NCBI GenBank assembly: GCA_946807835.1
Contig: OX327703.1
Span: 5,649,501-5,713,500, forward strand
Direction: 5' to 3'
DNA: 64,000 nt
Source: Ailanthus altissimus
Taxonomy: Eukaryota; Streptophyta; Magnoliopsida; Sapindales; Simaroubaceae
Part shown: positions 23,503-64,000 of the stretch, piece after piece
Position numbering within the stretch: position 1 is the first letter of the stretch
Layout: each line of letters opens with the position of its first letter
Made by a program: the position numbers and the translations under genes
Notes under the pieces: model-generated
Database searches by the model: none
What the model saw: only the letters and a program-made list of their open reading frames with translations
What the model was told of the DNA's origin: nothing

Positions 23503-25064
23503 TGTTTACGCTCAAAATATAACGCGACTATCGCAGTAGAGATTGAGGTGTCGATCCCACGAGGAAGCTCTTGGCAAAATAGGTTGATGAGGTAAAATAT
23601 TAAAGCAGTAGCAAAGGGTAAAATTAATTGATTTAAGTGGATGAGATAAGATTGTCTATGATTTGAAGGAAATATCTTATGATAATTCAAACAAGGCTTC
23701 GAGAATCACAATTATGCTTTATAAATCTACTATACATTTTGATTCAATGCTTATAACTCAATTGAAAGTTTCACATCCCAAACAATCAATCGGAAGATAG
23801 GAAAATATAGCACATTTGATAACACATGTATTTGACGTAATTAAACTCTTTGCAAGCATTAACATACATCATGTTCATTTATACAAGTTATCTAAGATCG
23901 ACAATATATCATTTTGACAATATTACAGTAAAAGATCAACTTGAATATTAAACATTTATTGCCCTTATATGTTATCCAAGATTGACAATATATCAATTTG
24001 ACAATACTGCAGTAACAGATTAACATATAAAACAATGTCACCAGTAACAATTATAGTTCACCAAGAATCACATAAGAAAAGCATGACTGAACTTATATGA
24101 GATATGAGAATTATAATCTCTAGATTATAGAAAATAGAATAGATAAGAGTTTAATCAAAACCAAACTTACAACATTTGTAGCTCTTGACACCGAATCAAA
24201 GCATAGAAGTAGATTTATAACACCTAAAAGTTCATCTCTTAGCCTTACCAAGAACTCTAGCCTAAATTACAATACATGTTAATGAGAAGAAAATAAGAGA
24301 GAATTATCTATTTTTAAAAACGTCCTAAGTGTCTCCTTATATAGGCAATGAATGGACATATGTCATGGATGACATCAATCTTCAATAATTTTAAGCCAAT
24401 AACTCGTTTATCCACTTGCAGCACATTTTTTATAATGTAAATGACTGATTTAGCTTCTATAGCTGACATGAAAGTTGTAGAATTTTGACTCTTCTTTCCA
24501 TAGGCACCAATGTCATACAAATTGGATGAGTATCCAATGAGATATGAGCAAAATTCTAAAGATACATCAGAATTTGTCCAATAACCATTTTACCCACTTG
24601 CAATGCAATTTGGTCCATGATAATGGCTGATTTGGACTTTACCATCAACATACGAGTTGTTGATAGTTAAGTCAAAAATTCATAGCTTCAAGAATTATAC
24701 CAATTGAGTATGTATTTGGTGAGATACGGTCCAAATACGTGAGTTGGGTCAAGCTGGGCAGGAGTTGTAGTCCGATTCTGTTGTATCTCAATTTTTGGCC
24801 CATAACATGTTGGATTTGGCTTTTCCACTATTCTTAAAATTTGTGTAAGATTGAGTTATGTTGCACCAGGTTCAAGAATGTCTTCATTTCGATTTCTACA
24901 TTGAGAGTTATGTCCATTTTACCTAAACCTGTCCAAATAACATTCATTAATCACAATTTAAGGAGAACACTTTATTTCAAGCTAAAAATACAGAAAATAC
25001 TAAAATTAGTGACATTAAATGGTGATTGAATCTCTTAACAACATGCATTTTCACGTGTTCATCA
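23503..25064 (-). repeat. 3' LTR of the Athila element
   Basis: 1,562 bp. On the minus strand it begins TGATGAACACGTG right after the PPT and ends GAGCGTAAACA. The end carries the Athila-type CGTGGGATCGACACC followed by CTGCGATAGTCGCG. A TATA box (CCTATATAAGG on the minus strand) lies at about 24336-24346. No partner LTR is found in the window. Confidence 0.85.
24336..24346 (-). promoter_or_regulatory. LTR TATA box
   Basis: Minus strand CCTATATAAGG about 720 bp into the LTR, matching the usual U3/R position. It would drive the element's genomic RNA if a 5' LTR existed. Confidence 0.55.
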
Positions 25065-25076
25065 CAGCCCCCAACT
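25065..25076 (-). other. Polypurine tract of the Athila element
   Basis: Minus strand GTTGGGGGCTG directly precedes the LTR start TGATGAAC, the expected place for plus-strand priming. Confidence 0.8.
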
Positions 25077-26413
25077 AGCTTATTGCTAGTCTCTAGCAAT
25101 TCAAGCGTAAATAGAATATGCAAAACTACCTAAGCATTTCAATCAAAACGTCAGTTCGAGATCACTGTTGCTATCATGGTTTTTTCAATTACAACTTCCA
25201 TAATTTGTGTGTGTGAACTAAGCCATAACCATCTAACCACAAACCACAATAGATATAGCCTTGAGAATTTCTCCAAGTAAAAGCCTCAACTCCATATCCT
25301 CACAGGTGTATGACTGTTTAAAAGGTTGGGACTTCTCTTATGGAGTTGGAAAACAGTTAAGCACTCAAGAAAAAGTCAATTTTAAGGACAGACATATAAA
25401 CTAACATTGATCCAAAGATAGGAAAATTATTTGTTTAAAAATCAATTATTCATATCATACGCCAGCTTTAGAACTTTAATTGGCTTGTGAGAATAATACA
25501 ATTATAACTTGGTGAGAAAACTGTTTTACAAAATATTTGTCTTCTAAAATTGAATGAAGACTTTATTAAACTGAATTGCTTTTTTTTTTTTGGTATTTTT
25601 TCTCTTTTTTTTTTTTTTAGTATTTTGCTTTTTTTTTTTTTGTATTTTTGAAGAATACAAGGAAGCATTACAAAGGTTTCTCACCAAATTATATTATACA
25701 CAAATGCAACCAACTTATCCCTTAATTCAAATAATATCATTTTAAACAAAAATTAACCAATTCAAAGGATCAATGAAGGTTCATAAGCTGTTTTCTCAAC
25801 CTTTCCACTTACTCACAAAATATATGTGAGATTTAGAAAAATATATACTTAAACATAGGAATTCTCTTGGCTATATAAATTGAATCATCCATCTTACCAC
25901 AAAACTTAGCATTGTGCTCAAAAATATTTTGAAAGTCATTCTTTAGTAACCTAGATAGAAATAGTGACTCAACCTAAACAATTCTGAAATCATACTTAGG
26001 CAGAAAAGCAAATTCCTTTATACAAAAATTACCAAAACTACAAGCAGTAAACGACAATGCATGAAATATAAAACAAAACAACAAAAAGTTAGTACTAAAA
26101 CTCCTTACTCTGCCATTCTAATTTGACCTAGAATGCGTCTCAAGAGTTCAAGAATGAACTCTTTACTCTATCATTTTAATCAAATGTCGGACCATAATTG
26201 TTTTTTTTTTTTGCAAAATGCAGCGTATGTCTACTATCCTCCCCCCAAACCAGATGAAACATTGTCCTCAATGTTTAAATAGAAAGAGATAAAGTATAGG
26301 AGACATTACCTGAAACGCCAGTTATTTGAAAGAAACAAACCTGAGAGACACTTAAGCAAATATAAACTAAAATGATGATATTGATAAATAAATAAATAAA
26401 TAAAAAGAAAAAT
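25077..26413 (-). other. Athila 3' untranslated region
   Basis: No ORF of note. It holds three long T-runs at 25580-25645 and one at 26197-26214 (A-runs on the sense strand). On the minus strand at 26237-26270 it has GAGGACAATGTTTCATCTGG followed by a GGTTTGGGGGGAGGA tract, a motif that in Athila-type elements follows the pol gene. Here the two accessory genes lie between integrase and this motif. Confidence 0.7.
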
Positions 26414-27060
26414 TTACAAACAAAGTGTCAGATCCAATTTTCGCTTGTTAAGGTCCACTGACCAATCGATCTGAGTTATTGTTGGGTCAGGTTCGTAGGT
26501 AACTGCCTGTAATTTATTAATCAATTCATCTGCCTCAATAGCAGAAACCAGGATCTGTTGCGCCGAATGTGAAATACAATTATGTTCCACAGCTTGATCA
26601 AGAAAACAAAGTAAGCAATCAAAATAGTTATTAACATTCAACAAATCTATGAGTTTTCAGTGGATATTCAGTTGGGCCCAAGAGACAATTTGAAAAATTT
26701 CTTCCAAGGTACCAAAACCACCTGGTAAAGCAATAAAAGCGTCTGCATTGCAAAGCATTCTAGCTATACGTTCATGCATGGATGAGACTCGTAATTCTTC
26801 CCCTATTGTTTTCCTGGTCAGGTTTCCCACGGCCAAAGCTGTAGGAATAATACCTAAAACTTGACTTCCTCTTAAATGTGCAGCTGTTGACACACACCCA
26901 TTAGCCCAAGGCTACCTCCTCCATAAATCAAATGAATTTTTCTTGCAGCTAATGCTTTTCCTAGATTGTTTGCTGCTTCTATGAACACTTTACTCTCCCT
27001 AGGACTAGATCCACAAAATACACATATATTTCGAAATTGTCGAACTTGGGTTTCCTCTAT
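26414..27060 (-). pseudogene. LOG: LOG cytokinin phosphoribohydrolase gene copy
   Basis: Homologue of LONELY GUY, which releases active free-base cytokinin from cytokinin riboside 5'-monophosphate in the cytosol. The ~215-residue reading starts near EETQVRQFRNICVFCGSSPR, has the nucleotide-binding IYGGGSLGLMG, then VLGIIP, HERIARMLCNADAFIALPGG and the family signature PGGFGTLEE, then WAQLNIH and LLNVNNYFDCLL, and ends with KRKLDLTL-type text. Length and domain order match full plant LOG proteins. Breaks: a one-base frameshift just after GLMGV (about 26893-26905), a TGA at 26657-26659 after WAQLNIH, and ATA at 27058-27060 where the family Met would be. Plant LOG genes have several introns; none is visible here, which points to capture through an mRNA. 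It lies in sense orientation inside the Athila element. Identity is sure; function of this copy is unlikely. Confidence 0.92.
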
Positions 27061-27110
27061 ATCTACACTCACCTTTATCTCAATATATGAAAATGAAGAA
27101 AATGAGGTGC

Positions 27111-27123
27111 TGTATTTATAGAG
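27111..27123 (-). promoter_or_regulatory. Possible TATA box of the LOG copy
   Basis: Minus strand CTCTATAAATACA lies about 50-60 bp before the presumed LOG start codon. The stretch from here to that codon has no ATG. It could be part of a promoter carried with the gene, or chance in AT-rich DNA. Confidence 0.35.
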
Positions 27124-27375
27124 TACCAAATGATAACAATGATTATGGTAACCCAACAGTTTGTCAAAAGAGAGTTAAAAATAAAACACAAAAATTTAAA
27201 CATAATGACCCACATGCATTATTAAACAAAAAGATTTGAATTTAAGACATCTACATGAGTAGCCCTACTATTCATAAAATAAAGTTTGAAATTAAAACAC
27301 ATGTATTTACAAGTAGTTGTGATTGTGGCTCACATCTTCCTTTGGTTTTACGTCCAGTAACGGCTTAAACGCCCT

Positions 27376-27924
27376 CTATGGGTCGGGGATAGGCTTCCCA
27401 TCCAATTTTCTTATAAATTGGCAAACAGGGTCTTTTAGAGTCAGATTCCCGAGACTATACCATTGATGTTCATTTTTGAATTTGTTCCACAAATCAAGAA
27501 GTTCACGTTGCACGAGCCTACAGGGATGCGTCTCAAGAGTCAATAGGATATCATCCAAAGACTCTTTACTCAGTCCATCCTTAATGAACTGAATTTTGTC
27601 TTCTCGATTTCTAGATACGAATCCTAAAGAACGACAACTCCGATTACAATTCCATCGAGCACATTTATGACAGACTTGTAACCTTTTTGTTCGTCGCCTT
27701 TTGGCATAAGAGCTTCTTCCAAGACTAGGCATATGAGAAACAAAATCATTTTCAAACTCACTAGACAACCGAACCTTGGCTTCAATTAACCAACGAAGGT
27801 CCACAGGGATATTACCCAACATCAATAACTTTAGTCTTTCACACCGTGCTTTGTGAATCTTAAGTATAGCATTTTGAGGCAATGAAGGAAAACATTTTTT
27901 AAGGTTAGCAAGAATGCGATCCAT
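27376..27924 (-). CDS. Accessory basic Cys-cluster protein, 182 aa
   Basis: Intact ORF of 182 codons downstream of integrase and upstream of the LOG copy. The start has a good plant context (TCAAAATGG). Residues 1-60 look alpha-helical with many Lys/Arg/Leu. GRSSYAKRRRTKR (69-81) is a strongly basic run that could bind nucleic acid or act as a nuclear signal. It is followed by four cysteines at 85, 88, 93 and 97 (C-X2-C-X4-C-X3-C), then FIKDGLS (113-119) and a tail with LETHPCRLVQRELLDLWNKF. The basic-run-plus-C4 layout recalls the cysteine-rich nucleic-acid-binding proteins of carlaviruses and relatives (Pfam Carla_C4), with shorter spacing in the finger; this is an inference from layout, not a search. 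It is not an Athila envelope-like protein: no signal peptide or membrane segment. Expression would be in sense with the element. Confidence 0.65.
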   Translation of the reverse strand: MDRILANLKKCFPSLPQNAILKIHKARCERLKLLMLGNIPVDLRWLIEAKVRLSSEFENDFVSHMPSLGRSSYAKRRRTKRLQVCHKCARWNCNRSCRSLGFVSRNREDKIQFIKDGLSKESLDDILLTLETHPCRLVQRELLDLWNKFKNEHQWYSLGNLTLKDPVCQFIRKLDGKPIPDP

Positions 27925-28172
27925 TTTGAAAGAAAGAAAAGAGATGAATGCACAGTTTAAGGGACAGTTTTTAGGGTACTGAGAAACCGACTTTAATAGT
28001 CACGGAGTACCGTATCCGCCACTTGACCAGGAAATAAAATCACACTGAAGAAAAAATAAAAAGAAGAAAATAAAGTAAAATAAAATGTGCAAGAAAATAA
28101 AAGCAAAAATAAAAAGTCAAAAGATAAAATATAGACAAAATATAAAATATGGTACAGATAGATTGAACCTGA
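27925..28172 (-). promoter_or_regulatory. ATG-free leader with splice acceptor
   Basis: The 248 nt between the integrase stop and the accessory ORF contain no ATG on the sense strand, although several are expected by chance at this base composition. A long pyrimidine-rich tract ends in TTTTTTCTTCAG at 28046-28045, a good plant 3' splice site 121 nt before the start codon. This suggests the accessory ORF is read from a spliced subgenomic RNA. Confidence 0.5.
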
Positions 28173-29447
28173 TCAATCACGATAGACAGGATCCACAAGA
28201 GGGATCTCGCCTAGGTACATAGAGTCGTCTACCTTTTCCACGTAGTTTTTTAGCCGCTGTCCATTCACTTTGAAAGTCCGTCCATCAGTGGGGTCTTCTA
28301 TTTCAACAGCATCATTAGGAAAAACATGTCTTACCATAAATTGACCAGTCCATTGAGATCTCAACTTTCCAGGGTGTAAATGCAATCGAGAATCATAAAG
28401 ATAGACCCGTTGATTTGGCTCAAAGTGTTTCCTTGAGATCTGTTTATCATGAGCTACTTTCATTTTAGCTTTGTAAATTCTGGAGTTGTCATATGCATCA
28501 TTTCGTAGCTCTTCTATTTCTGCCAATTGTAACTTTTTCTGGAGACCTGCAGCATTCAAATCAAAGTCAAGGGCTTTGACAGCCCAATAAGCTTTATGTT
28601 CTAGCTCAATAGGTAAATGGAAAGCTTTCCCATAAACAAGCCAGTATGGAGACATTCCTAAGATGGTTTTGTATGCAGTACAATATGCCCATAATGCATC
28701 AGAAAGGCGTAGAGACCAATTTTTGCGATTCGGGTTAACCGTCTTTTCCAAAATCTATTTAACCTCTCTATTTGCTAGCTCGGCTTGTCCATTTTTCTGT
28801 GGATGGTATGCAGTGGAGACTTTGTGAAAAACACCATACCTATGCATCAAAGCTTCAAAAGAACGATTACAAAAATGTGTTCCTTGGTCACTAATGATGA
28901 CACGTGGCGTACCGTACCTAGATAACACATTTTCTTTTAAGAATTTTACCACAGTTGTATTATCATTAATATGACAAGCTACAGCCTCCACCCATTTTGA
29001 TACATAGTCAACAGCTAAAAGGATGTAAAGATAGCCAAAAGATAAAGGAAAAGGACCCATAAAATCGATACCCCAATAGTCAAATATCTCGATAACAAGA
29101 ATAGAGTTAAGAGGCATCATATTTCTTTGAGATAAAGCACCTAACTTTTGACATCTTTCACAGGAACGACAAAAATTATTAGTGTCTTTGAACAAAGTGG
29201 GCCAATAAAGACCACACTGTAAAATTTTCACAGCTGTCTTCTTCATAGAAAAATGGCCACCGCAAGCAGCATTATGGCAAAAATTTAAGACACTAGAAAC
29301 TTCACTTTCAGGAATGCAACGTCTCATGATTTGGTCAGGACAGTATTTGAAAAGATATGGATCATCCCAATAAAAATTACGTACCTCAACCAAGAACTTA
29401 CGCTTATTTTGTGCACTCCAGTCAGATGGAAGTTCACCACAAACCAA
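28173..29447 (-). pseudogene. Athila integrase
   Basis: An HHCC zinc-binding region is visible (CHNAACGGHFSMKKTA ... FCRSCERCQ, about 29170-29300), then the catalytic core. DDE residues occur in DYWGIDFMGPF, VIISDQGTHF and HPQKNGQAELANRE. The C-terminal part reads [50 protein letters not shown] and ends LVDPVYRD. There is one in-frame stop after ANREVK (28752-28754) and no frameshift. No chromodomain, as expected for Athila. It is continuous in frame with RT-RNase H upstream. Confidence 0.9.
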
Positions 29448-31415
29448 ATAATTTACGATATGTGCATACCAAGGTATTTGGCTTATAGCAAAAAGATGTT
29501 CATCTGAAAAATCGTCTCAAATGGGTGGCAAATCAGTGGAGTCAGTGAACTCAAGGCGGGATAGATGATCAACAACAATATTTTCAACGCCTTTGTTATC
29601 TTTGATGGTTATATCAAATTCCTGCAAAAGAAAAATCCACCTAATTAAATGGGCTTTAGCATCCTTCTTAAAAAGAAGATACTTAAGGGCTGCGTGGTCA
29701 GTAAAAATAACAATAGGTGAACCAATCAAATAAGAACAAAATTTATCTAAAGCAAAAACAACAGCTAATAGTTCTTTTTCAGTAGTAGTGTAATTCATTT
29801 GAGCATCATTCAAAGTCCTACTAGCATAATAAACAACAAAGGGTTTTCCCTCCCTCCGTTGCCCAAGAACTGCTCCTACAGCATAATTACTTTCATCACA
29901 CATAATTTCAAATGGGAGGTTCCAATCCGGTGATTGCATGATAGGAGCGGTGGTGAGTTTGGCAATGAGTGTTCAGAATGCCTCCTCACACTCTTGTGTC
30001 CATGTAAATTCTGCATCTTTTAGCAAAAGGTTACACAATGGTCTAGATATGGCAGAAAAATTTTGTATAAACCTTCTGTAAAAGCCAGCGTATCCAAGAA
30101 AGGATCGGACATCTTTTATCGTTTTAGGTGTAGATAATTTAGAGATTAATTCAATTTTTGCCTTGTCAACCTCTATCCCTCTTTTAGATACAATGTGCCC
30201 CAAAACGATTCCTGAAGATACCATGAAATGACATTTCTCCCAATTTAGTACAAGTTCTTTTTCTTCACACCTACTCAAAACAGATTTCAAGTTAAGTAGG
30301 CATAAATCAAAAGAATTACCAAAAATAGTCAAATCATCCATAAAGACTTCCATGCATTTTTCAACCATATCAGAGAAGATACTCAACATACAACACTAAA
30401 AAGTAGCTGGTGCATTACATAATCCAAATGGCATTCTACGAAAAGCATAAGTACCAAAAGGGCATGTAAAAGTAGTTTTTTCTTGATCTTCTATAGTTAT
30501 CTCAATCTGTTAATACCCTGAATACCCATCAAGAAAGCAATAAAAAGGATGTCCAGCTACACGTTCTAAAATTTGGTCAATAAAAGGCAATGGAAAATAG
30601 TCTTTCCTAGTGGCTGTGTTTAACTTTCTATAATCAATACACATTCTCCAACCACTTACTACCCTAGTTGGAACAGGTATCCCATTCTTATTTTCAACAA
30701 CAATAACCCCAAATTTCTTAGGAACTACTTGAGTTGGACTTATCCATTGACTATTAGAAATTGGGTAGATTATACCCGCATCTAATAGTTTCAAGACCTC
30801 TTTCTTCACTACTTCTTTCATTGTTGGGTTAAGTCTTATTTGTGGGTCTCTACAAGGTTAGGTACCTTCCTCTAAATGAATTCTATGGGAGCATATCAAT
30901 GGAGAAATACCTTTAATATCAGCTATGGTCCAACCTAGTGTAGACTTATGTTCTTTTCACAATTTTATCAATTTTTCCTCTTGTTCAGCACTAAGTTCAG
31001 AAGAAATGATGATAGGAAAGGTATCACCTAGTCCCAAGAATGCGTGTTTCAAACCTTTGGGCAGTGGAGAAAGCTCAACTTGTGATGTCTCGAGGTTTGA
31101 TGGTTTTGGTCTCTCCCTCTCTCGTGGCAACTCTTCAAAGCATGGCTGCCAAAATCGAGTCCCTTTATCTTGTGAGTCAAAAATACTAAACACATCAGTT
31201 GTTACATCAGGATAATACAATTCTTCAAAATCAAAATTGAGAAGGTTTTTCGAAGAATCATAGCTATGATTTTTATAAGCTTCCTCTGCTACAAGTGTGT
31301 CTATCATATATGAATGATAGCACTCATCTTCTTCTCGTAGTTGTTTGCCAATATTGAAAATGTTCATCTCAAGAGTCATATTCCCAAAGATAATTTCATT
31401 AGACCATTTTTGCAA
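29448..31415 (-). pseudogene. Athila reverse transcriptase and RNase H
   Basis: In one frame, reading leftwards: linker (31415-30957), RT start VLKLLDAGIIYPISNSQW, GWRMCIDYRKLN, then YAFRRMPFGLCNAPATF, and the intact catalytic box EVFMDDLTIFG near 30340. GHIVSKRGIEVDKAKI, VRSFLGYAGFYRRFI and RNase H follow ([52 protein letters not shown]). In-frame stops are at the residues after LEEGT, DGYSGY, APATF, ECEEAF and TDLPPI. There is no frameshift within this part; a one-base shift separates it from protease at about 31376-31415. Confidence 0.9.
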
Positions 31416-32032
31416 TTAATAAGAGCGTTAGCAATGGCTAGAAAAGGTCTTCCCAAAATAAAAGGGATTTTTGACTCCATGTTAACAACAGAATGAGTAG
31501 CTAAAACAAGAAAATCAACAGGGTAGTAAAATTTATCAATTTGCAACAAAACATCTTTTACTATTCCCTGTGGTTTCTTGATTGATCGGTCAGCTAATTG
31601 TAGGACTACAGATGTTGGTTTAATCTCACCAAGTCCCAACTGCAAGTAAATAGAATAAGGCATTAAATTTACACTTGCTCCTAAGTCCAATAAAGCTTAA
31701 CCAAACTCATGTGTTCCAATTTGGCAGGAGATTGTGGGACATCCTAGGTCTTTATACTTGGGTGGTGTCTTTTGTTCAATCACTGCACTTACCTGTTCTG
31801 CCAAAAATGCAATTTTCTTCACATGGTGTTTTCTTTTGATAGTGCATAAATCCTTGATGACTTTGGCATAAGTTGGAACCTGCTTAATCAAATATAATAA
31901 GGGAAGATTAATTTTAACTTGTTTCAAATGTTCTAAAATCTCACCTTGAATTTCTGAGTTTTTTCCAACCGGTCGAAGAGCTTGAGGAAAAGGCACTGGG
32001 ATTGAAAACTTACTTTCGAGTTCTTTTTCCAT
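31376..32032 (-). pseudogene. Athila protease region
   Basis: The aspartic protease active site reads ALLDLGASVNLMPYSIY near 31640-31690 (DLGA, as in the Athila group). It is followed by VVLQLADRSIKKPQGIVKDVL, FYYPVDFLVL, and IPFILGRPFLAIANALINC with the flap and GRPFL box. A stop replaces one residue just before ALLDLGAS (31694-31696). The upstream 111 codons (31697-32032) form the gag-protease linker. Confidence 0.85.
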
Positions 32033-33598
32033 TGTGGCCTCTTTTTCAAGGGGGACGTCTTTACTACTCGTAGATGTGTTAATTTCAAGAGTAGGCTCAC
32101 TTACAATCTTACCACTTCAAGTAGTAATGGCATTGACTTCTTTGAGATTTTCAACATCAGAAGTAGAAGCTTGTGCCATGAATTGTCCTTTCGGATTGGA
32201 TTGAGGTTGAGATGGAAACTTACCTCGCTCTTGTACAGTTAAGGCACTGGTCAACTTTGTAATTTGACTCTTAATTTCTTTATTTTAGTCTACCACCTGT
32301 GCAAGAATTGTTTCAAATTTTTGATTAGTCATACTTTGTGCCTCTATAAATGCTTGTAATGTATCATCTAAAGAACTCCTAGTTGGTCGTGCATTATATT
32401 GAGGTGCAATATAAGACTTGGGTGCTTGTTGTTCTTGTTTCCACTGGCTATTGGCTTATTGGTTAGATTTTCAACTGAAATTTGAGTGGTTTCTCCAGCT
32501 AGGATTATATGTTTCAGAGTAGGGTGAATAAGGCTTCTTGTACATCCCTAGGGCATTACATTATTCCTCATATATCCCTCTCATCTCACTAAACGTGGGG
32601 TAATCCTGAGCTAAGTGTTTCGCTCATTCACAAACAAAACAGACATCGTGTGACTCAACTCTAGCAACTGTGTGGGTGACCCTTCTATCTTTGGTTTTCA
32701 AGGCCTCTAACTCCCTAGTTAAGACCTCTAATTGGGCTTTGAGGTTATCCTCTTTCCTAAGATGGAAAACTCCATTAGGTCGTGACCTATTTGTACTTTC
32801 AGTAATACTAGGTCCAGTCCATGTATGGGCTTTTTCGGCTAAGTCATTAAGGAATTCTATGGCTTCATTGGGATCTTTTTGAAGGAACTCCCCATTACAC
32901 ATCATCTCAACAAATTGGCGCTCTCTAATTGTGAGTTCCTCATAGAAATAACTAACCAAGCGCCAATTTTCATACCCATGGTGAGGGCACAGATTTAGCA
33001 ACTCTTTAAACCTTTCCCATGCTTGATATAAGGTTTCACTGTCTTTTTGGGAGAAGGAAGAAATTTTTCTTTTCAGGCCATTAGTTTTGTGTTGTGGGAA
33101 GTATTTATTGAAAAATGCTTCGGTCATTTCTGCCCAAGTTTCTATAGACCTCGACCTCAAAAAGTATAGCCAACTCTTTGCTTTGTCTTTCAAAGAAAAA
33201 GGAAAAAATTTAAGTCTAACAGTGTCTATGGCTTCAAGTTGGCAATGGAAGGTGGCAATTACCTCTTCAAATTCCCTAACATGTACATAAGGATTTTCAC
33301 TATCTAGACCATGAAAAGTGGAAAGAAGTTGTATCATTCCAGGTTTAAAATCCGAATGTGGTGTGTTAAATGGAAATATAATGCATGATGGTGTGGCTGT
33401 GCGAGTAGGATGCAAGTAATCTTTTATAGTTCTAACGGGGTTTTCTTCATGTTGGTTCATTGTGTTAGAATTACAAGATGAACTAGAAGGTGAATTCTCT
33501 TTACTTACAAATTGTGTGGGTGGTTCTAGTTCTAGTTCTAGTTCTCTCACAAATCTTCCTCGTTTGTCTCTAAGTCGATGCATACATCCTAACAACAA
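32033..33598 (-). pseudogene. Athila gag
   Basis: A 324-codon block (33598-32624) starts at a Met and has the retrotransposon gag core: FHGLDSENPYVHVREFEEV, VRLKFFPFSLKDKAKSWL, WAEMTEAFFNKYFPQHKT, ISSFSQKDSETLYQAWERFK and LNLCPHHGYENWRLVSYFYE. After it come a damaged zinc knuckle (CFVCE, stop, AKHLAQDYP, with the last Cys changed to Tyr) and a Gln/Ser-rich region with several stops down to 32033. The repeated E-L-E-P near the N-terminus comes from a GTTCTAGTTCTAGTTCTA short repeat on the plus strand at 33522-33543. Confidence 0.9.
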
Positions 33599-33674
33599 TA
33601 TATTTTTTTTTAAGGAAAGAAATGCTTAAGGAAAATTAAGAAGTAGAATAAACACAACAAGAAATAGAAATGAG

Positions 33675-34138
33675 TTAGGTAGTAAGACCAACCATGAAAT
33701 ATAAATACAATAACTAAACAAAAGACTCTAAAGTATGGAAAAAAAAAGTACAATAAATAAATAATAAAAAGAAAATACAATAAGTAAATAAATAAAAGGT
33801 TAGGCGGTAGAACCGGCCATTAAAATAAAAAGAAAATACAACATGTTAACTAAAGAAAATAAAGTGCAATAAATACGTAAAAGAAAATAAAAATAAAGTG
33901 CAATAAAAAAAATGCAATAAATAAATAAAGTACAATAAAAATAAAGAAACTAAATTAGGCGGTAGAACCGGCCACAAAATAAAAAGAAAATACAATAAAT
34001 TAACTAAAGAAATAAAGTACAATAAATAGATAAAAGAAAATAAACTAATTAGGCGGTAAAACCAGCCATTAAGATAATATAAAATATAACAAATTAACTA
34101 AAAAAAATAAAACAAATTAGGTGGTAGAACCAACCATG
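33675..34138 (-). repeat. Leader repeats with GC-rich hairpin core
   Basis: Five copies of a core like TTAGGCGGTAGAACCGGCC (plus strand) lie at 33675, 33800, 33955, 34049 and 34117 in A/T-only surroundings. Each core can fold as GGC-GGT / AGA / ACC-GCC with one bulged base. The copy at 34117 has both outer sides changed (GGTGGT...ACCAACC) and still pairs. They sit upstream of gag, where packaging and dimerisation signals lie in retroelement RNAs. Confidence 0.8.
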
Positions 34139-34189
34139 AATAATAAATAAATTACAACAAAGGAAATAAAACAAAGATTTTACTATAGT

Positions 34190-51900: not shown

Positions 51901-54614
51901 TATCAAAAATTAGCCTCTTAGTATAAAAATACACTTTTGAAACCCTAATTTACTCATTTTTGGGTCGAGCTACCCCTTTAGAGAGAGAAATGAGAGAAAT
52001 AGAGGGGAGAGAAAGAGAAGAAGAAGAAGAAAAAGAAGAAGAAATTGAAATTTTGGATTTTAAGAGGTATATCACAACTATTTCTCAATTTATTGGTGTT
52101 AATTAAGTTAATTCCTTTAATTTTTTATTTTTGGAAATATGTATAATTGAGGATTTTATGTGTATTTCGTAAGATATTGTAAGAATTGATGATGATCTAT
52201 GTAGATAGCTTGATAAATCTTGATGAATTGCAGAATTTCTACTTGATAAACTCCTGACCCAAGACTCTTATAAATTGTTGTGATTCAATTCTGGTTTTTA
52301 ATTTTCATTATATAAAATTACATATGTTTAGGATTATCTGAGACTTTGAATCGATTGAAAATGTTAGAAATTGAATTTGTAGTAAATTTATCAAAATGAC
52401 CCTGAAATTCTGGAAATTTCCTGTGTGAACAGTATAATACAGTGACAAATAATTTCTGATCTACTTAATGATCTTAAAAAATTATGAATTTATGGAAATT
52501 GAGAATTTATATCAATGTGGTTAAATTGTTATAATTTTCTAAAGAGTGTCAGCTCATTGCAGTATTTGATTAAAAGATTTTCAAAGCTATAGAATAAAAT
52601 AGTTTTAAAATACTTTTGGCAGTGATTTTAAAGTGAAATATTTATCATTAATTGAGATATATGTCAAAAGTATTTCGGTGATAGTTTTATAATTTTTGAG
52701 TTAGTATATGATTTTATACAATTGGGAGATTGAATACTGTTCAGTAAATATCTTGATCCTGTCAGGATAATAGTTTGGATTTGATGGTGTTTATGGAATA
52801 GACTGTGTAGGAATTATGATATAATATTCATACATAAGAAGGATATATGAGTTAAGAATGATATATTCTAATTTTGGAGTAATTGGACATCATTTGATAT
52901 ATAAGAAAATTTTGTTAAGTGTAAGTAGTCAGAATGATAGGTTTTGAGAAACCAAGTAATTAGACCAATTTGATGTGATAAGTGTAATAAGTATAATTTT
53001 GTAAGCTATTTAAATTATTTTGTGTGAATTGTGAGACTAATGAAAGGATTAATCGCCATTGATAGTTTAAGGAGAATTAAGCCTTGTACCCAAAAGTGCT
53101 AAGAGGTAAGTATACTAGACTTTTACTGAAATCATAATAAACATAGTAATTGTCTATGTATGATATTTTAAATGTGCTTAGAAATATGTTTATATTATGT
53201 CAAAGTATATTTGATATGAAATGTGAAAGAAATATGTTTATGAATGTGAGCATTGACATTGAGCATGGATATACATGTGTTTTTGAAAGTGAGCTTTCAA
53301 AATAAGATGTGTTTAGCAAAGAAAGCTTTTGAAGTGTAATATGTCCATGAGAAATATTTTGTATTTTGAGGGTACTTGAACTCACTGTTAACTTAGTAGG
53401 CATTTTATGTGATTTGTGGAGCCTTTATGTGTGGCATTTCCTTCGAGATTGGTATATGTTATGTGTTTCGTATGTAGGGAGGATCCTATTGGTACCTAAA
53501 GGAAGAGTGAGTCATCACATTTGTGTGGTGGCGTATTGGTGTATGTGAGAGGACTCACCGATGATCAGGGTGAGGGTTTGGCTTTTACCTTCGGGCATGA
53601 GCATTATATATGTGTGATTTAAAAACCTCATTTATACTATTCCTCTCATACAGTATGTCACCTACAAGTGACATTTGGCTCATTATGTAATATGTGATAT
53701 GTAAGTCCTACTAAGTAGTAGTTGAGTGATGGTATTCCTATTATATATTTTGAAAGAATGTGTAAGCGCTTACATGACATGTGATTTGATAAGATTATGA
53801 TTTTGATTGATCACAGTATATCATACATATGCATTGTGTACATATATGTATTTGTATTTGATATATGAAAAACTAGTATGCTTACTGAGTTTTATACTCA
53901 TTATAGTTTATAATGATTTCAGGTAAATACGGTACATGTGTGCTTAGCGGATTTGGCAAGGCTTCTGCTGTTCCTTGGGTTCCCTAAGTTGCTAGGTTGT
54001 TAAGTCTTTCATTTAAGGATACGTGGGATAAGATATTTGATTTATCCCTATTGAATAAATACTTATGTATTATTTTATTATGTATGGTTGGATTTGGTTT
54101 AAGTTTCACCAAATGTGGTTATTGGTTGATTTTAAGTAAGAATTTGCAATGAATATATTCTGAGCTTTCGGTAACAAAGTTGCTACTGGTGACGCAGTAG
54201 AGTGTTAATCTCTGAGAAAACTCTGCGTATCTCCGGTTTACTAATTGTCCCAGTCATAATTCAATTGTTATAATTCTGAAAGAAATTAAAATAAATGTTT
54301 AAATATTATTGAATGAATGTAAGTGATGTCGTGTGTCAGATCTTTTGGGTCTGAGGCATGACAATGGGAGTAAAATTGACAAGCAAATAATAGAGGAGCT
54401 TAAAGAAGAACTGGCCAAATTGAAGGCTGAGGAAGCTGATTGGACTAAGCGTTCTCAAAATTTAAGAGAGTAAATTTTGAGTAATAGTCCCAGAAGAGAA
54501 AATTTGAAGAAAATCTTAAAGCTTAAGGATGTTTTAGTTCCCAAGGCCAAAGCTGAGTTGAAGAGAATTAACTCCACTATGGCTAATTTTATTTCATCTT
54601 TAGACAAATTATAA
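48973..54614 (+). pseudogene. Plant mobile domain (PMD) ORF, split by a solo LTR
   Basis: Plus-strand reading from ATG 48973 (MASKLTNTLRSKKTC) with many stops. It includes SKIIADYLNYFPAHHKDPL near 49155, the PMD core FRYTLPTLYDLVILLNISV near 49460, then IEHIAFLLY, KYLKVAIAMANGVSLAL near 49710, FFLSHLYRSL, and ADWHDSWISC near 50045. The C-terminus is a Lys/Glu-rich coiled coil: VLDHFKVQLIRVFKELGDG up to 51690, continuing after the inserted LTR with SKIDKQIIEELKEELAKLKA from 54364 and ending at TAA 54612-54614. One TSD copy plus the downstream sequence restores the frame across the insertion. PMD proteins occur in plant genes and as antisense accessory ORFs in Tat-lineage retrotransposons; the position here fits the latter. 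Confidence 0.75.
51691..54363 (+). repeat. 2.67-kb solo LTR with TSD inside the PMD ORF
   Basis: Starts TGTAGTAACCAGTATCC and ends GGGTCTGAGGCATGACA, flanked by the 5-bp TSD ATGGG (51686-51690 and 54364-54368). It has a TATA (AGTATAAAAATACAC) near 51919 and a purine-rich transcribed leader at 51980-52040. At 53880-53940 is the TTACTGAGTTTTATACTCA...CAGGTAAATACGG layout of Tekay/Del-type LTRs. Several ORFs inside it are meaningless. Confidence 0.93.
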
Positions 54615-57269: not shown

Positions 57270-60130
57270 CATTACGTGGGATATAGCATACAACATATTA
57301 TAGATGTAATTTTCTTTTTTATTTAGGTATTTTGTATTAACCACGGTTATTTAGGACACCATAAAATATCAACCCCTTGCATTATGTTACATTTATGGTG
57401 TACATAATTACAAACTCACAATTTGTATAAAAGTGGGTACACCCTCTTATATTTGTGGGTATGAAGGGAAAAATGTAAGAACGTGCCCTGTATTAAGTGG
57501 GATAAAACATACAACATGCTGTTGATGTAATTTTTTTTATTTATATAATCTTCTTGTATTATATCACATTTCTAGTGTAGATAAATTCAAACATCAATTT
57601 GTGTAAAAGTGGGAACACCCTCTTATATTTGTGGGTGAGAGATGCCAAAAGTGAGAACACGTCTTTCATTAAGTGGGATAACACATACAGCATGTTGTGG
57701 ATGTAATTATTTTACTTAGATATTTTTTATATTAACTATGATTATTTAAGATAACCATAAATATATCATCCATTGTATTATGTCATATTTCTGATACAGA
57801 TAAATACAAACTCATAATTAATGAAAAAGTGGGAACATACTCTTATATTTGTGGGTGAGAAGTGCAAAAAGTAGGAACACATCATACATTAAGTGGGATA
57901 CGACATACAACAAGTTGTGGATATAATTATTTTTTTTATTTTAGATACTTTGTACTAACCATTGTTATTTAGAACACCTATAAAATATTATTACCTTATA
58001 TTATTTTAAATATTTTTGTGTAAATAATTTGCAAACTCGCAATTTATAAACAAAATGGAAATAATGTCTAATATTTGTGGGTCAACGTTATAAAAAAGTG
58101 GGAACACATCCTGCATTAAGTGGGATACAACAGACAACAGGTTGTGGATATAATATTTTATTTTATTTTAAGGTACTTTTGTATTAACCATGATTATTTA
58201 GGACATTCATAAAATATCATCAGCTTGTATTACGTTACATTTTTTGTGAAGATAATTGTAAACTCATTTTTATAAAAACGTGGGAACACCGTCTTGTATT
58301 TGTGGATCAGTAGTGTAAAAGTGAGAATATATTACATGATATAAGGGGATGTTATTTTATGGGTGTCCTATATAAGTATGGTTTTATATATTTATAAAAA
58401 ATAAAATAATTACAAACCACATCATGTATGTTTCCACTTAACATATTACATGTTTTCATTAATTGTTTTCTTTACCAAGAAAAGTATCTATATCCCCACT
58501 TCTATATTTTTAGTGCATTGTCAGTTACTATTAAAAACATGTTACATAATATAGGGGGATGCTATTTTATAAGTGTTCTAAATATATATATTTTTTATAT
58601 GGTTTATAAAAAATAATTACAAACACATCATGTATGCTCAAACTTAACATAATGCATGTTCCCACTATTTGTTATCATCGCCAAGAAAAGTACATATATA
58701 TTGACTTCTACATTCTTAGCATGTTATCGGTTACCAATAAAAATATGTTATATAATATAAGAGGATATTATTTTATGGGTGTCCTAAATAAGTATGGTTA
58801 TTATGTATTTTACAAAAAGAATAAAATAATTACAAACAATATCATGTATGTTCCCACTTAATATACTATATATTCCTACTATTTGTTGCTTTTACTAAGA
58901 AAAGTGTGTATATCCTTACATCTACATTCTTAGTGCATTGTCGGCTACTATTGAAAACATATTACATAATAACACCCTATTATATATGTGGGTGAGAGGT
59001 ACAAAAAGTGAGAACACGCCTTACATTAGTGGTATACAATATATATAAAGTTGTGGATGTATTTCTTTCTTTTTTATTTAGATACTTTATATTAACCATA
59101 GTTATTTAAGATGCTCGTAAAATATCATCCTCTTATATTATGTTACATTTTTTGTATAGTTAAATGCAATCACACACTTTATGTATAAGTGGGAATACCC
59201 TCTCACATTTGTGGGTAAGAGATACAAAAAGTGGGAACACACCCTATGTTTGTAGGATACAACATAAATAAAGTTATGAATGTATTTTTTTTAGTTACTT
59301 TATATTAACCATAGTTATTTTGGATACCATAATATATTATATACATTTTTTGTTTAGATAAATGCAAACTCGCAATTTATGAAAAAGTGAGAATAACTTC
59401 TTATATTTGTGTGTCAAAGATGAAAAAGGTGAGAAGACGTCCTACATTAAGTGAGATAAAACATACAAAAGGTTGTGAATATAATTTAAATTTGTTTAGG
59501 CACTTTATATTAACCATAGTCATTTAAGACACTCATAATGTATTATGTTACACTTTTTATTTAGCTAAATGCAAACTCATAATTTATAAAAAAAAGTTGG
59601 GATACCCTTTTATATTTGTAGGTGAGTGGTGTAAAAAGTGGGAGCACGCTGTGCATTAATAGGATACAACTTATATAAAATTGTGAATGTATTTATTTAT
59701 TTTATTTAGGTGATTTATATTAACCAGGGTTATTTACACCCATAAAACATTATTCCCTTGTATTATGTTATGTTTTTTTGTTTATCTAAATATAAGCGTG
59801 CACTTTATGTATAAGTGTGGATACCTTCTTACATTTGTGGGTGAGACTTAGAAAAAGTGGGTACACGCCCTACGTTAAGTGAGATACAACATAATTAAAG
59901 TTTTAGGTTTTTTTATTTTTTTATTTAGGCATTTTATATTAACTATAGTTATCTAATACACTCATAAAAAGATTATCACCTAGTATTATGTTGCATTTTT
60001 TGTACAACTAAATGCAAACTTACATTTTACTTATAAGTGGGGATATCATCGCACATTTGTAAGTGAGAGGTGCAAAAAGTGAAAACAAGCCCTACGTTAA
60101 GTGGAAAATAACAGACATAAAATTATGAAT
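57270..60130. repeat. ~220-bp satellite-like tandem array
   Basis: About ten forward units can be followed by the landmark TTAAGTGGGATACAACATAC (shortest form AAGTGGGAT). It occurs near 57278, 57494, 57671, 57891, 58117, 59023, 59250, 59446, 59653, 59873 and 60093. Other constant blocks are TTTATATTAACCATGGTTAT, GGACACCCATAAAATAT, TTATGTTACATTTTTTGT, GTGGGAACACCCTCTTATAT and TTGTGGGTGAGAGGTGCAAA. Divergence between units is 15-30 percent. One block (58325-58975) is inverted. Confidence 0.88.
58325..58975 (-). repeat. Inverted block within the array
   Basis: Three units read in reverse: TATAAGGGGATGTTATTTTA plus GGGTGTCCT recurs near 58341, 58551 and 58762 (~210-bp spacing). This is the complement of the forward block GGACACCCATAAAATAT...CTTGTATTATG. 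It also holds TACATCTATATCCCCACTTC-type text. Confidence 0.85.
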
Positions 60131-60159
60131 GTGTTTCTTTTTTTATTTAAGTATTTTTA

Positions 60160-63100
60160 TATTAATCGTGATTATTTATAATTTTAATTTTAGTTACATT
60201 AATATTATAATTTTAAATTCAATTTCAATTACGTTCAAAATTTTAAATATAATCCGAATTTTAATTTCTTTAAATATTATAATTCTAATTCTAATTTCAA
60301 TTTTAATTACGTTAAATGTTATAATTTTAAATCTATACTGTAAGTGTTATAATTTCAATTATAATTTAAATTTAAATTTAAATTATAATAAATATTATAA
60401 TTTCAATTCTAAATTCAATTGTGTTAAATGTTATAATTTCAATTCCAATTTAAATTTTAATTATGTTAATGTTATAATTTCAATTCTATTTTAAATTTAA
60501 ATTATGTTAATTATTATAATTTCAATTCCAATTTCGATTTCAATAACTTTAAATATTATAATTCCAAATCAAATTTCAATTTCAATTACATTAAATGTTA
60601 TAATTCCAATACCAATTTTAACTTTAATTACATTAAAATTTATAATTTTAATTTCAATTACGTTAAATATTATAATTCAAAATCCAATTTCAAATTTAAT
60701 TACATTAAATGTTATAATTTAAAATCCAATTTCAATTTCAATTACGTTAAATATTGTAATTCAAACTTCAATTTCAATTCCACTAAATGTTATAATTCTA
60801 ATTTTAATTTTAGTTACGTTAAATATTATAATTCTAAAATGAAATTTTAAATTCAATTTCAATTCGTTAAATATTATAACTTCAATTCTGATAAATGTTA
60901 TAATTCTAATTTTAATTTTAATTAAATTCAATTCTAACATTTAACATAATTAAAATTAAAATTAGAATTAAAATTAGAATTAAAATTGGAGAATTCTTTC
61001 TCACCTTAAATTGAAACTTCAAGGGATTGAATTTGTGCCAATGGAAACCATAACTTTCATACACAATAGAAAGATATGATAGATCTATTTTTTTTAGATT
61101 GAGAATGCAGTTCTTCAATTCTATCTGATTATAACATTTAATATAATTTAAATTAAAATTAGAATTAGAATTATAACATTTAATGTAATTAAAATTAAAA
61201 TCGAAATTATATTTTGAATTATAATATTTTATCGTAATTCTAAATTAAATTTAAAATTAGAATTGGAACAATAATATTTAGCGTAATTGAAATTAAAATT
61301 AAAATTATAATATTTAACATAATTAAAATCAAAATTAGAATTAAAATTATAACATTTAATGTAATTGAAGTTTAAATTGGAATTAAAATTATAACATTTA
61401 ATGTAATTGAAAATTTAAATTAGAATTGAAATTATAACATTTATCGTAGTTGAAATTTAAATTTAAATTGGAATTAGAATTATAACATTTACTGTAATTA
61501 AAATAGAAATTGGAATTATAGAATTTAACATGATTGAAATTGAAATTAGATTTATAATATTTAACAAAATTTAAATTGAATTTTAAATTTTAAATTGAAA
61601 TTATAACATTTTATATAATTGAAATTATAATTGAAATTAAAATTATAACATTTAACGTATTTGAAATTAGAATTGGAAGTATAATATTTAATTAATTTAA
61701 ATTTAAATTAAAATTAAAAATATATCATTTAGCATAATTGAAATTTACCCTATTGTGCCAAAATGAACTAGAAGCTTATTTTGCTGCTAATATACTAGCC
61801 ATCTATCAGTATTTCCTCTTCCGCTTCTATTTTTGGGTTTTTCCTATGATGTATACTTTTGTCTTTGAAGATACAGACGAGGTTAAGGAGTATAATTTTG
61901 TTGATTCATTCATTCACAAGTGTGTATGATAAGAAAAACTACTATTAAGAAATTAAAATTTTAATATTTAATATAATTAAAATTAAAAATAGAATTGAAA
62001 TTATAACATTTAACATAATTAAAATTAGAATTGGAATATGAATTATAACATTTAATGTACATGATATTGAAATTGAAATTTGAATTATGTATTTGAAATT
62101 AAATTTAAATTTGGTAAAAATATTTACGTAATCGAAATTAAAATTAAAATTATAATATTTAATGTAATTGAGATCAAAACTGAAAATAGAATTATAACAT
62201 TTAATGTAATAGAAATTAAAAATTAGAATTGAAATTATAACATTTAACATAGTTAAAATAAAAAATGGAATTGAAATTATAATATTTAACGTAATTAGAA
62301 TTGAATTTAATTTTGAAATTCGAATTATGGCATTTAATGTAATTGAAAATGGATTTGGAGTAATTAAAATTAAAATTAGAATAAGAACTATAACATTGGA
62401 AGTAATTGAAATCAAAATTATAACTAAAAATATAACATTTGATATTATTGAAATTAAAGTTGCTTCATTAAAATTATAATATTTAATGTAAATAAAATTG
62501 AATTTAAATTTATAATTAGAATTATAACATTTTACGTAATTGAAATTGGAATTACAACATTTAATATAATTGAAATTAAATTTGAATTTAGAATTATAAC
62601 ATCTATCATAATTATAATTAAAATTATAACATTTAGCGTAATTAAATTAAAATTAGAATTTGAATAATAATATTTAACATAGTTGAAATTAAAATTAAAA
62701 TTGAATTTGTAACTACAACATTTTAACACAAATGAACAATTGAAATTGGATTTTCAATTAGAAATATATAACGTAATTAAAATTAAAATTGCTATTGGAA
62801 TAATAAGATTTAAGATAATTAAAATTGAAATTAAAATTTAATTTTAAATTATAATATTTAACGTATCTAAAATTTAAACTAGGTTTGAAATAATTAATAT
62901 TTAACGAATTTGAAATTGAAATTTGATTTCAAATTATAATACTTAATATAATTGAATTTGAATTTGAAATTATAACATTTTAAAAATTTTGAAATTGAAT
63001 TTAGATTTCGAATTACACAATTAACGAAATTGAAATTGACATTAAAATAATATTTAAAATTATAACATTTATCGTATTTTTAATTTTTATTTAATAATAT

Positions 63101-63560
63101 TTAACATAACTTAAATTGAAATTAAAATTAAAATTAGAATTAGAATTAAAATTATGTTATCTAACGTACACCAAATTGAAATTGAACTACGATTTAGAAT
63201 TATAATATTTAATGTTATTGAAATTAAAATTATAATTAAATTACCAATTATAACATATAACATAATTTAAATCAGAATTTGAATTAGATTTATAATATTT
63301 AACGTAATTAAAATTAAAATTTTACTTCAATTGTAACATTTAACGTAATTAAAATTAAAATTGAATTTCAAATTTTAACCTTAAACGTAATTGATATTGA
63401 AATTAAAATTCTAATTGCAATTATAAAATTTAATGTAATTTAAATTATAATTGAAATTGGAATTAAATCTTTTAATATAATTGAATTATAAATTAAAATT
63501 TAAAATATAACATTTAACATTATTAAAATCAAATTTCAAATTGAAATTATAACATTCACT
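60160..63560. repeat. Hexamer-built AT-rich minisatellite with one orientation switch
   Basis: About 3.4 kb of ~35-45-bp units made of runs of AATTYY hexamers (AATTTC, AATTCC, AATTTT) followed by a core like ACGTTAAATATTATAATT. From ~60160 to ~60925 the core reads in this orientation. From ~60935 to 63560 almost all units are its reverse complement (ATTATAACATTTAACGTAATTG). Two unique segments interrupt it: about 60985-61130 and 61738-61945. All ORFs here (for example 60129-60494 and 61945-62415) are repeat artefacts of Ile/Asn/Leu-rich text. Confidence 0.9.
61738..61945 (+). other. Unique insert inside the minisatellite
   Basis: A non-repetitive segment of ~200 bp with a 63-codon ORF (61738-61929) containing YQYFLFRFYFWVFPMMYTFV. 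No known family. Base composition differs from its surroundings (more G and C), so it is probably a foreign fragment trapped in the array. Confidence 0.5.
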
Positions 63561-64000
63561 AACATCAACTCTTTCAACTATAGAATTTATTAGACAAATT
63601 CAAATTTAATTAAATTAATATATAGAATGATACAGATAATGATCATACAGTTCTTGCAAATATATGTATTTCTACAATATATTTATTATACATACAATTT
63701 ATTATTATAAGGATAATTAGTTCATTTTAATAGGATTAACTTTAAGTTTTTCAAAAAATAAATTTAAATTGCAAATTTGAATTTGAATAAAATTGAACTA
63801 ATAAATAAAAGGATCAATTTTTTAATTATTAATAAATTTTATTGTTATTTAAATTTATAAAAAATAGAGGGAATTGTTTTTATTAAATTATATTATTACT
63901 AGTTGGCCACCTGTATTAATGTGTTAACCCCTCCATTGGCTGCCATTTGTCATCCGATAAAGAGAGTGCACCGATGTCATTTGGCTGCTCGAAACAACTA
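63561..64000. other. Non-repetitive window end
   Basis: AT-rich until ~63900, then more balanced sequence (GGCCACCTG, CCCCTCCATTGGCTGCC). No ORF or element is recognised before the window ends. Confidence 0.5.

What the first reader, a model, noticed from the sequence alone, without database searches (positions are those of the whole stretch)
23503..34150. Athila-type retrotransposon carrying an accessory module: C4 basic protein plus LOG cytokinin gene
Between integrase and the 3' LTR, where Athila relatives often have an envelope-like ORF, this element has two sense-oriented non-envelope genes. One encodes an intact basic four-cysteine protein, the other is an intron-less LOG gene. LOG raises free cytokinin, which promotes cell division; a nucleic-acid-binding partner could act on silencing or transcription. 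Together they suggest an element that may have altered its host cell, a strategy known from plant viruses and tumour-forming bacteria but not, to my knowledge, from retrotransposons. This copy's LOG is broken.
Basis: partly seen in the sequence, partly recalled or inferred. Interest (0 to 1): 0.88.

Follow-up and report, generated by a model that had tools for sequence, protein, structure and literature searches.

The report
Jumping gene with virus-like and hormone genes
A plant jumping gene carries two extra genes that have stayed under selection, one resembling a plant-virus nucleic-acid-binding protein and one a cytokinin-activating enzyme with an added tail of the kind that binds a plant gene-repressor, so the element may be able to influence the cells it lives in.

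Summary
A 5'-truncated Athila-like element (23503-34183, minus strand) has, between integrase and 3' LTR, an intact 182-aa ORF and a broken intronless LOG gene. The ORF passes Pfam cut-offs for flexivirus nucleic-acid-binding proteins (NABP). The two genes are a real cassette. They recur in order in this genome; of the 150 best-scored hits for each, 143 (NABP) and 136 (LOG) have no stop. A second high-copy LOG family (two loci read, one with both genes intact) repeats the order; between families dN/dS is about 0.13 (LOG) and 0.20 (NABP). Named relatives span 13 eudicot genera. New here, as far as my searches reach: the NABP partner, a TATA box before LOG shared by both families, and a conserved C-terminal basic patch plus LxLxLxL (EAR-type) tail, absent from 120 of 120 host-type LOGs compared. 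Not new: LOG-like domains in Citrus and Populus Gypsy elements are in print. Against a simple reading: element LOGs keep R98 and E121 but 103 of 106 lost lysine 99. Enzyme activity, co-repressor binding and silencing suppression are untested. Verdict: a conserved accessory cassette that plausibly acts on the host cell; the mechanism is inferred.

The parts
23503..34183 (-). Athila-like Ty3/gypsy element, 5'-truncated (5' LTR and about 95 bp of leader missing)
23503..25064 (-). 3' LTR
25065..26413 (-). noncoding stretch between LOG and 3' LTR
26414..27060 (-). LOG gene, broken in this copy (start lost, one frameshift, one in-frame stop); intact in other copies
26417..26449 (-). codons of the C-terminal basic + LxLxL (EAR-type) tail of LOG
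27113..27120 (-). TATAAATA 60 nt before the LOG start position, conserved in the second family
27308..27375 (-). 68-nt block after the NABP stop; one mismatch between two families
27376..27924 (-). NABP (C4) gene, intact, 182 aa, Viral_NABP / Carla_C4
28173..29447 (-). integrase (zinc-binding and core domains at 28755-29447, C-terminal part 28173-28751)
29517..30821 (-). RNase H and reverse transcriptase, split ORFs (RNase H by Pfam; RT pieces by eye)
32624..33598 (-). gag (Retrotrans_gag)
33599..34183 (-). AT-rich repetitive leader, cut at 34183

Best explanation
An Athila-like lineage of eudicot retrotransposons carries a two-gene 3' cassette where relatives have an envelope-like gene. Gene 1 (NABP) is a basic zinc-finger protein homologous to the cysteine-rich nucleic-acid-binding proteins of flexiviruses. 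Gene 2 is a LOG (cytokinin riboside monophosphate phosphoribohydrolase) domain with an added C-terminal basic patch and LxLxLxL motif, probably transcribed from its own TATA promoter. Shown: homology, order and spacing, many copies without stops, purifying selection between families, conserved tail and TATA box. Inferred: NABP works in the nucleus to weaken silencing of the element or to regulate transcription; LOG raises free cytokinin in cells that express it while its tail recruits TOPLESS-type co-repressors. Together they would favour expression and multiplication of the element in dividing meristem cells that lead to gametes.
For: NABP passes Pfam cut-offs; 71 of 78 aligned relatives hit Viral_NABP, 68 of 78 Carla_C4; finger cysteines kept in 71, 76, 77 and 75 of 78 rows. 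LOG: TIGR00730 and PF03641 above cut-off, AtLOG3 structure E=4e-63; R98 in 100 and E121 in 105 of 106. Recurrence: 49 of the top 80 NABP hits have a listed LOG hit 316-321 nt downstream; 20 of 20 best LOG loci full length, 17 of 20 with intact NABP. Selection between families: LOG 0.127, NABP 0.202. Tail: LxLxL in last 12 residues of 96 of 121 element LOGs, 0 of 120 host LOGs in the last 40. TATA box. Literature passages: carlaviral CRPs as silencing suppressors, CVB p12 as transcription factor causing hyperplasia; LOG supports meristem size, WUS binds TOPLESS through its C-terminal region with an EAR motif.
Against: No assay of any kind. K99, lysine in AtLOG3 and AtLOG8, is I, M or L in 103 of 106 element LOGs, and the CtkRMPhLog equivalog cut-off is not reached (114.2 of 300 bits; a model for bacterial and archaeal annotation). 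In the window's own LTR subfamily N/S is near neutral (17 LOG copies). NABP zinc-finger spacing (CX2CX4CX3C) differs from the carlaviral CX2CX12CX4C. The NABP fold model is weak and no viral fold match is significant. The Xanthoceras LOGs, sister to the rest, lack the LxLxL tail. dS of 1.8 for LOG is near saturation. Best-scored hits favour intact copies.
Confidence: 0.5

Rival explanations
1. The LOG domain is no longer a cytokinin enzyme. It is a nucleotide-binding or dimerising scaffold that presents the EAR-type tail, or it acts on another small nucleotide; co-repressor recruitment is the working part.
For: K99 replaced in 104 of 106 (103 by I, M or L), H96 kept in only 49 of 106; equivalog cut-off not reached; tail strongly conserved.
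Against: R98, E121 and the PGGxGT motif stay nearly invariant across about 40% divergence, which a mere scaffold would not need.
Confidence: 0.25
2. Both genes serve the element's own replication or RNA handling (NABP as RNA chaperone or accessory nucleocapsid) and any effect on host growth is incidental.
For: Finger-plus-basic architecture; position between pol and 3' LTR, like other element-specific ORFs.
Against: Gives no role to a LOG domain with conserved catalytic residues and its own TATA box.
Confidence: 0.17
3. Passenger genes: chance capture of host or viral sequence, carried without function.
For: LOG is intronless; this copy is broken; near-neutral N/S within the window's subfamily.
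Against: Two divergent families with the same order and between-family dN/dS of 0.13-0.20; 136 of 150 and 143 of 150 best-scored hits without stops; element LOGs apart from host LOGs in a tree.
Confidence: 0.03

Closest known systems
Gypsy/Athila elements with a LOG (YgdH / LOGL4-like) ORF: Alvarado-Marchena 2022 (PMC9289625, abstract, section 12 and passages seen); Steinbauerova 2011 (not held; recalled)
   Same: LOG-type domain in plant Gypsy elements (Citrus, Populus); in Athila elements by the recalled report
   Different: The text I saw does not mention the NABP partner, the tail, the TATA box or selection
Flexivirus NABP / cysteine-rich proteins (carlaviruses, allexiviruses, mandariviruses; PMC12172455, PMC10141686, passages seen)
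   Same: Pfam families Viral_NABP and Carla_C4; basic stretch beside a four-cysteine finger
   Different: 182 aa, different finger spacing, in an integrated element of plant genomes; direction of transfer unknown
Orchid Gypsy elements with an AlkB m6A demethylase (PMC9289625)
   Same: Plant Gypsy lineage that fixed an extra enzyme gene
   Different: Different enzyme, Phalaenopsis only in that screen; activity shown in vitro there, not here
Athila envelope-like ORFs (PMC11728184, PMC7264820, passages seen)
   Same: Position between pol and 3' LTR, sense strand
   Different: No Pfam or ORF evidence of an envelope-like protein here

Membership tests
Athila lineage (Ty3/gypsy) | gag and pol with RNase H before integrase, sense-strand 3' extra genes | tested here: met
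   Pfam gag, RNase H, integrase in order
Athila lineage (Ty3/gypsy) | RT/RH/INT phylogeny | not tested
   no reference set in hand; pol motifs look Athila-like from memory only
Athila lineage (Ty3/gypsy) | primer binding site for tRNA-Asp | tested here: inconclusive
   relative L004 has TGGCGCCGTTGCCGGGGA after the LTR; its match to tRNA-Asp is recalled; site missing from the window copy
Flexivirus NABP (Viral_NABP, Carla_C4) | Pfam gathering score | tested here: met
   33.3 against 23 and 24.6 against 20.9 bits
Flexivirus NABP (Viral_NABP, Carla_C4) | carlaviral finger CX2CX12CX4C beside a basic motif | tested here: inconclusive
   four conserved cysteines beside a basic stretch, but spacing CX2CX4CX3C
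Flexivirus NABP (Viral_NABP, Carla_C4) | silencing suppression or nucleic-acid binding | not testable with these tools
   needs assay
LOG cytokinin-activating enzymes | family profile and PGGxGTxxE motif | tested here: met
   TIGR00730 164.7 against 96.35 bits, PF03641 126.3 against 27 bits; motif columns
LOG cytokinin-activating enzymes | catalytic R98 and E121 (roles recalled) | tested here: met
   100 and 105 of 106
LOG cytokinin-activating enzymes | lysine after R98, as in AtLOG3 and AtLOG8 | tested here: not met
   K in 2 of 106
LOG cytokinin-activating enzymes | NCBIfam equivalog CtkRMPhLog cut-off | tested here: not met
   114.2 against 300 bits
LOG cytokinin-activating enzymes | release of free cytokinin | not testable with these tools
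   needs assay
EAR-motif proteins | LxLxL sequence (definition recalled) | tested here: met
   96 of 121 within the last 12 residues
EAR-motif proteins | binding to TOPLESS or SAP18 | not testable with these tools
   needs binding assay

The most novel reading that the evidence does not exclude
A retrotransposon lineage deploys an effector-like pair on its host: a flexivirus-type nuclear zinc-finger protein that lowers silencing or switches growth genes, and a LOG-EAR fusion that makes cytokinin and captures TOPLESS-type co-repressors. By keeping the meristem cells that feed the germline dividing, the pair would raise the element's transmission, a growth-manipulation strategy like those of plant viruses and gall-forming microbes.
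Probability: 0.3. Interest if true: 0.93.

Novelty: new variant of a known kind. Interest (0 to 1): 0.8.

Why it matters
Plant elements are mostly viewed as targets of silencing. A conserved pair that joins a relative of viral silencing suppressors to a hormone-enzyme domain with a co-repressor-type tail makes the question 'do plant retrotransposons manipulate host development?' testable with two small proteins. It also bears on where flexivirus nucleic-acid-binding proteins came from, because the gene is spread through eudicot genomes. A published survey counted extra ORFs of at least 250 codons (PMC6317226 passage), so genes of 182 and 215 aa would have been passed over there.

Tried and rejected
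Rejected: one-off insertion or passenger genes (recurrence, between-family dN/dS). Rejected: an envelope-like reading of the C4 ORF (Pfam NABP match instead). Near-neutral N/S in the window's own LTR subfamily looked at first like evidence against function; I read it as decay of dead copies, since intact copies of the two families give 0.13-0.20.

Led nowhere: IMG/VR scan with NABP, 6 pattern matches, none confirmed. Host LOG genes of this genome could not be listed, because a host-type LOG query returned a second high-copy family instead; so 'intronless, unlike host LOG' rests on recalled gene structure. The NABP fold model was too weak for conclusions (pLDDT 69.6, pTM 0.35); 20 of its top 28 viral matches are named nucleic-acid-binding proteins or silencing suppressors, but 0 of 47 reach E<=0.001. 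The LOG of the young second-family copy against the decayed one gave dN/dS 0.84 at 50% identity and NABP 0.49; these are comparisons with a dead copy, and the LOG one is partly out of frame. Early hand-registered LOG segments were partly misaligned and were replaced. No structure of LOG was predicted.

Rows dropped: the tree used 24 of 120 host LOGs (every fifth), 106 of 121 element-type LOGs (205-222 aa), three Xanthoceras rows, AtLOG8 and two bacterial LOGs. LOG column counts used 106 of 121 (208-220 aa); NABP columns the window plus 77 of 120. Linkage used the top 80 of 150 NABP rows against all 150 LOG rows. The null used contigs of 2-100 kb (42 and 18). One search used 17, 16 and 14 copies for LOG, NABP and integrase; segments too long or short were left out by the script.
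Full report
What is there. The window is G000:C21:5649501-5713500 in a 939-Mb genome of 37 contigs. The finding is a minus-strand Ty3/gypsy element: gag 32624-33598, RT and RNase H pieces, integrase 28173-29447, then two extra genes and the 3' LTR 23503-25064. The window holds no second LTR. Alignment to other copies stops at 34183, so the 5' LTR and about 95 bp of leader are missing. In relative L004 the leader begins with TGGCGCCGTTGCCGGGGA, which I recall as the Athila tRNA-Asp primer site.

The C4 ORF. 27376-27924 encodes 182 aa and passes Pfam's cut-offs for Viral_NABP (33.3 bits) and Carla_C4 (24.6 bits). A protein search found 465 relatives among 525 candidates at E<=10. Of the 120 listed, all carry PF01623 in the precomputed column and 67 are exactly 182 aa; the named ones come from Populus, Xanthoceras, Rhamnella, Acer and Orobanche. 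In 78 aligned rows the finger cysteines are kept in 71, 76, 77 and 75 rows; 71 of 78 hit Viral_NABP and 68 of 78 Carla_C4. The fold model is weak; 20 of its top 28 viral matches are named nucleic-acid-binding proteins or silencing suppressors, none significant.

The LOG gene. In the window it has lost its start and has one frameshift and one in-frame stop. Intact natural copies exist. One of 215 aa scores TIGR00730 164.7 bits, PF03641 126.3 bits and AtLOG3 E=4e-63. The search with it gave 7908 hits among 7999 scored candidates. The 120 listed are mostly proteins of 215-217 aa, and the named ones come from Reevesia, Diplodiscus, Pterospermum, Populus, Paulownia, Xanthoceras, Melia, Parasponia, Primulina and Rehmannia. 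That these sit in elements is inferred: many loci per genome in some species, the shared tail, three contig lengths above 2 kb shared with NABP hits (2128, 4511, 8723; null mean 0.10, P about 1e-4), and a Xanthoceras gene model that joins LOG to an Athila-like pol stretch (compared by eye). In a tree of 136 rows the 106 element-type LOGs lie on one side of a 100/97 branch from 24 host LOGs (the bootstrap had not fully settled). The sets were chosen by similarity, so this shows separation, not the donor.

The cassette recurs. Of 39 LTR flanks fetched, 15 carry NABP and LOG in the same order. Genome searches scored 150 of 6300 LOG candidates (136 of 150 without stops, 34 with one identical score) and 150 of 4836 NABP candidates (143 of 150 without stops). 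These are the best-scoring hits and so favour intact copies. Of the 20 LOG loci fetched, 20 have a full LOG and 17 an intact NABP. Of the top 80 NABP hits, 49 have a listed LOG hit 316-321 nt downstream, 44 of them at 318; a miss may only mean that the LOG was not among the 150 listed. A query with a host-type LOG3 returned a second high-copy LOG family (122 of 150 hits without stops; a few rows are first-family copies). Of two of its loci read, L071 has NABP and LOG intact in the same order; in L072 a repeat also present at window 53583-54387 lies before LOG and NABP is not in the stretch. A decayed copy at another place (L040/L070) repeats the order.

Selection. Intact copies of the two families: LOG 67% aa identity, dS 1.80, dN 0.228, ratio 0.127; NABP 75%, dS 0.85, dN 0.172, ratio 0.202. 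Against the decayed copy: LOG 0.198, NABP 0.232, integrase C-part 0.127. LOG dS is near saturation, so its ratio is rough. Within the window's own old subfamily N/S relative to neutral is 0.97 and 0.88 for LOG (single, shared), 0.88 and 0.92 for NABP, 1.07 and 0.82 for integrase, as expected of dead copies.

The tail and promoter. LxLxL lies within the last 12 residues of 96 of 121 element-type LOGs and the exact end LxLxLxL in 85 of 121, against 0 of 120 host LOGs in the last 40 residues and 9 of 23141 12-mers of the element LOG bodies. A basic run lies in the last 20 residues of 101 of 121, against 1 of 120 hosts. Columns K206 (103 of 106), L209 (88), L211 (96), L213 (94) and L215 (95) stand beside a variable linker. 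The Xanthoceras LOGs, sister to the rest, lack LxLxL. The pattern fits the plant EAR motif (definition recalled); EAR proteins bind TOPLESS and SAP18 (PMC6916588 passage). TATAAATA lies 60 nt (first family) or 73-74 nt (second family, decayed copy) before the LOG start in a diverged spacer, and in 19 of 20 young copies; by base shuffling it occurs in 0.9% of such 100-bp stretches.

Catalysis is uncertain. R98 and E121 are kept (100 and 105 of 106), but K99 is I, M or L in 103 of 106, and the CtkRMPhLog equivalog cut-off is not reached.

Mechanism. Shown: homology, linkage, integrity, selection, tail, TATA box. Inferred: NABP acts in the nucleus on silencing or transcription, as passages report for carlaviral CRPs (PMC12172455, PMC10141686; Lukhovitskaya 2013 seen only as cited there); LOG raises cytokinin and its tail recruits a co-repressor. 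In meristems LOG supports meristem size and WUS acts through TOPLESS with an EAR motif (PMC10573764 passages), so the two activities could converge on dividing cells that give rise to gametes.

Prior art. PMC9289625 (abstract, section 12 and passages seen) reports a YgdH/LOG domain in Gypsy consensuses of two Citrus species and, with its filter off, Populus trichocarpa, citing Steinbauerova 2011. That paper is not held; from memory its abstract names two Athila-like elements similar to LOGL4. Searches for NABP with retrotransposons, LOG with retrotransposons and EAR or TOPLESS with them listed no paper on the NABP partner or the tail; I saw listings only for most of those papers, and the library lacks most subscription journals. 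Term searches in PMC7264820 and PMC11963269 found no cytokinin or carlavirus mention; PMC11728184, searched for other terms, shows a different Athila extra ORF. PMC6317226 counted extra ORFs of at least 250 codons.

Verdict. A real, conserved, high-copy accessory cassette, partly foreshadowed in print, with new and testable features.

Noticed in passing
window 27308-27375 (minus); L053, L071, L070: The 68 nt after the NABP stop differ by one base between two families whose NABP has dS 0.85, and stay open in the NABP frame for 22 codons in three copies. A cis-acting element, or stop-codon read-through.
   Followed up: partly
window about 28045 (minus); L071 upstream of NABP: A pyrimidine tract ending in CAG lies before NABP in both families, a possible splice acceptor for a subgenomic RNA; a GGCGGATA-CGGTACTCCGTGA-like motif follows it in both.
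   Followed up: no
just before the LOG start in L071, L072, L070 and the window: GGTGAGT, a splice-donor-like string, about 13 nt before the LOG start; present in only 1 of 20 young first-family copies within 20 nt.
   Followed up: partly
window 33739-34183: The leader is built of AT-rich units with TTAGGCGGTAGAACCGGCC-like repeats that match each other in several registers between copies.
   Followed up: no
window 60001-64000: G+C falls to about 16% over the last 4 kb.
   Followed up: no
window 53583-54387; L072 1-915: The stretch before LOG in L072 matches this window region at about 83-89% in translated pieces; it looks like another mobile element.
   Followed up: no
L068, L069 (C5): Neighbouring LTRs at one young locus share 731 bp with 2 mismatches; nested copies there, so not proven to be one element's pair.
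   Followed up: partly
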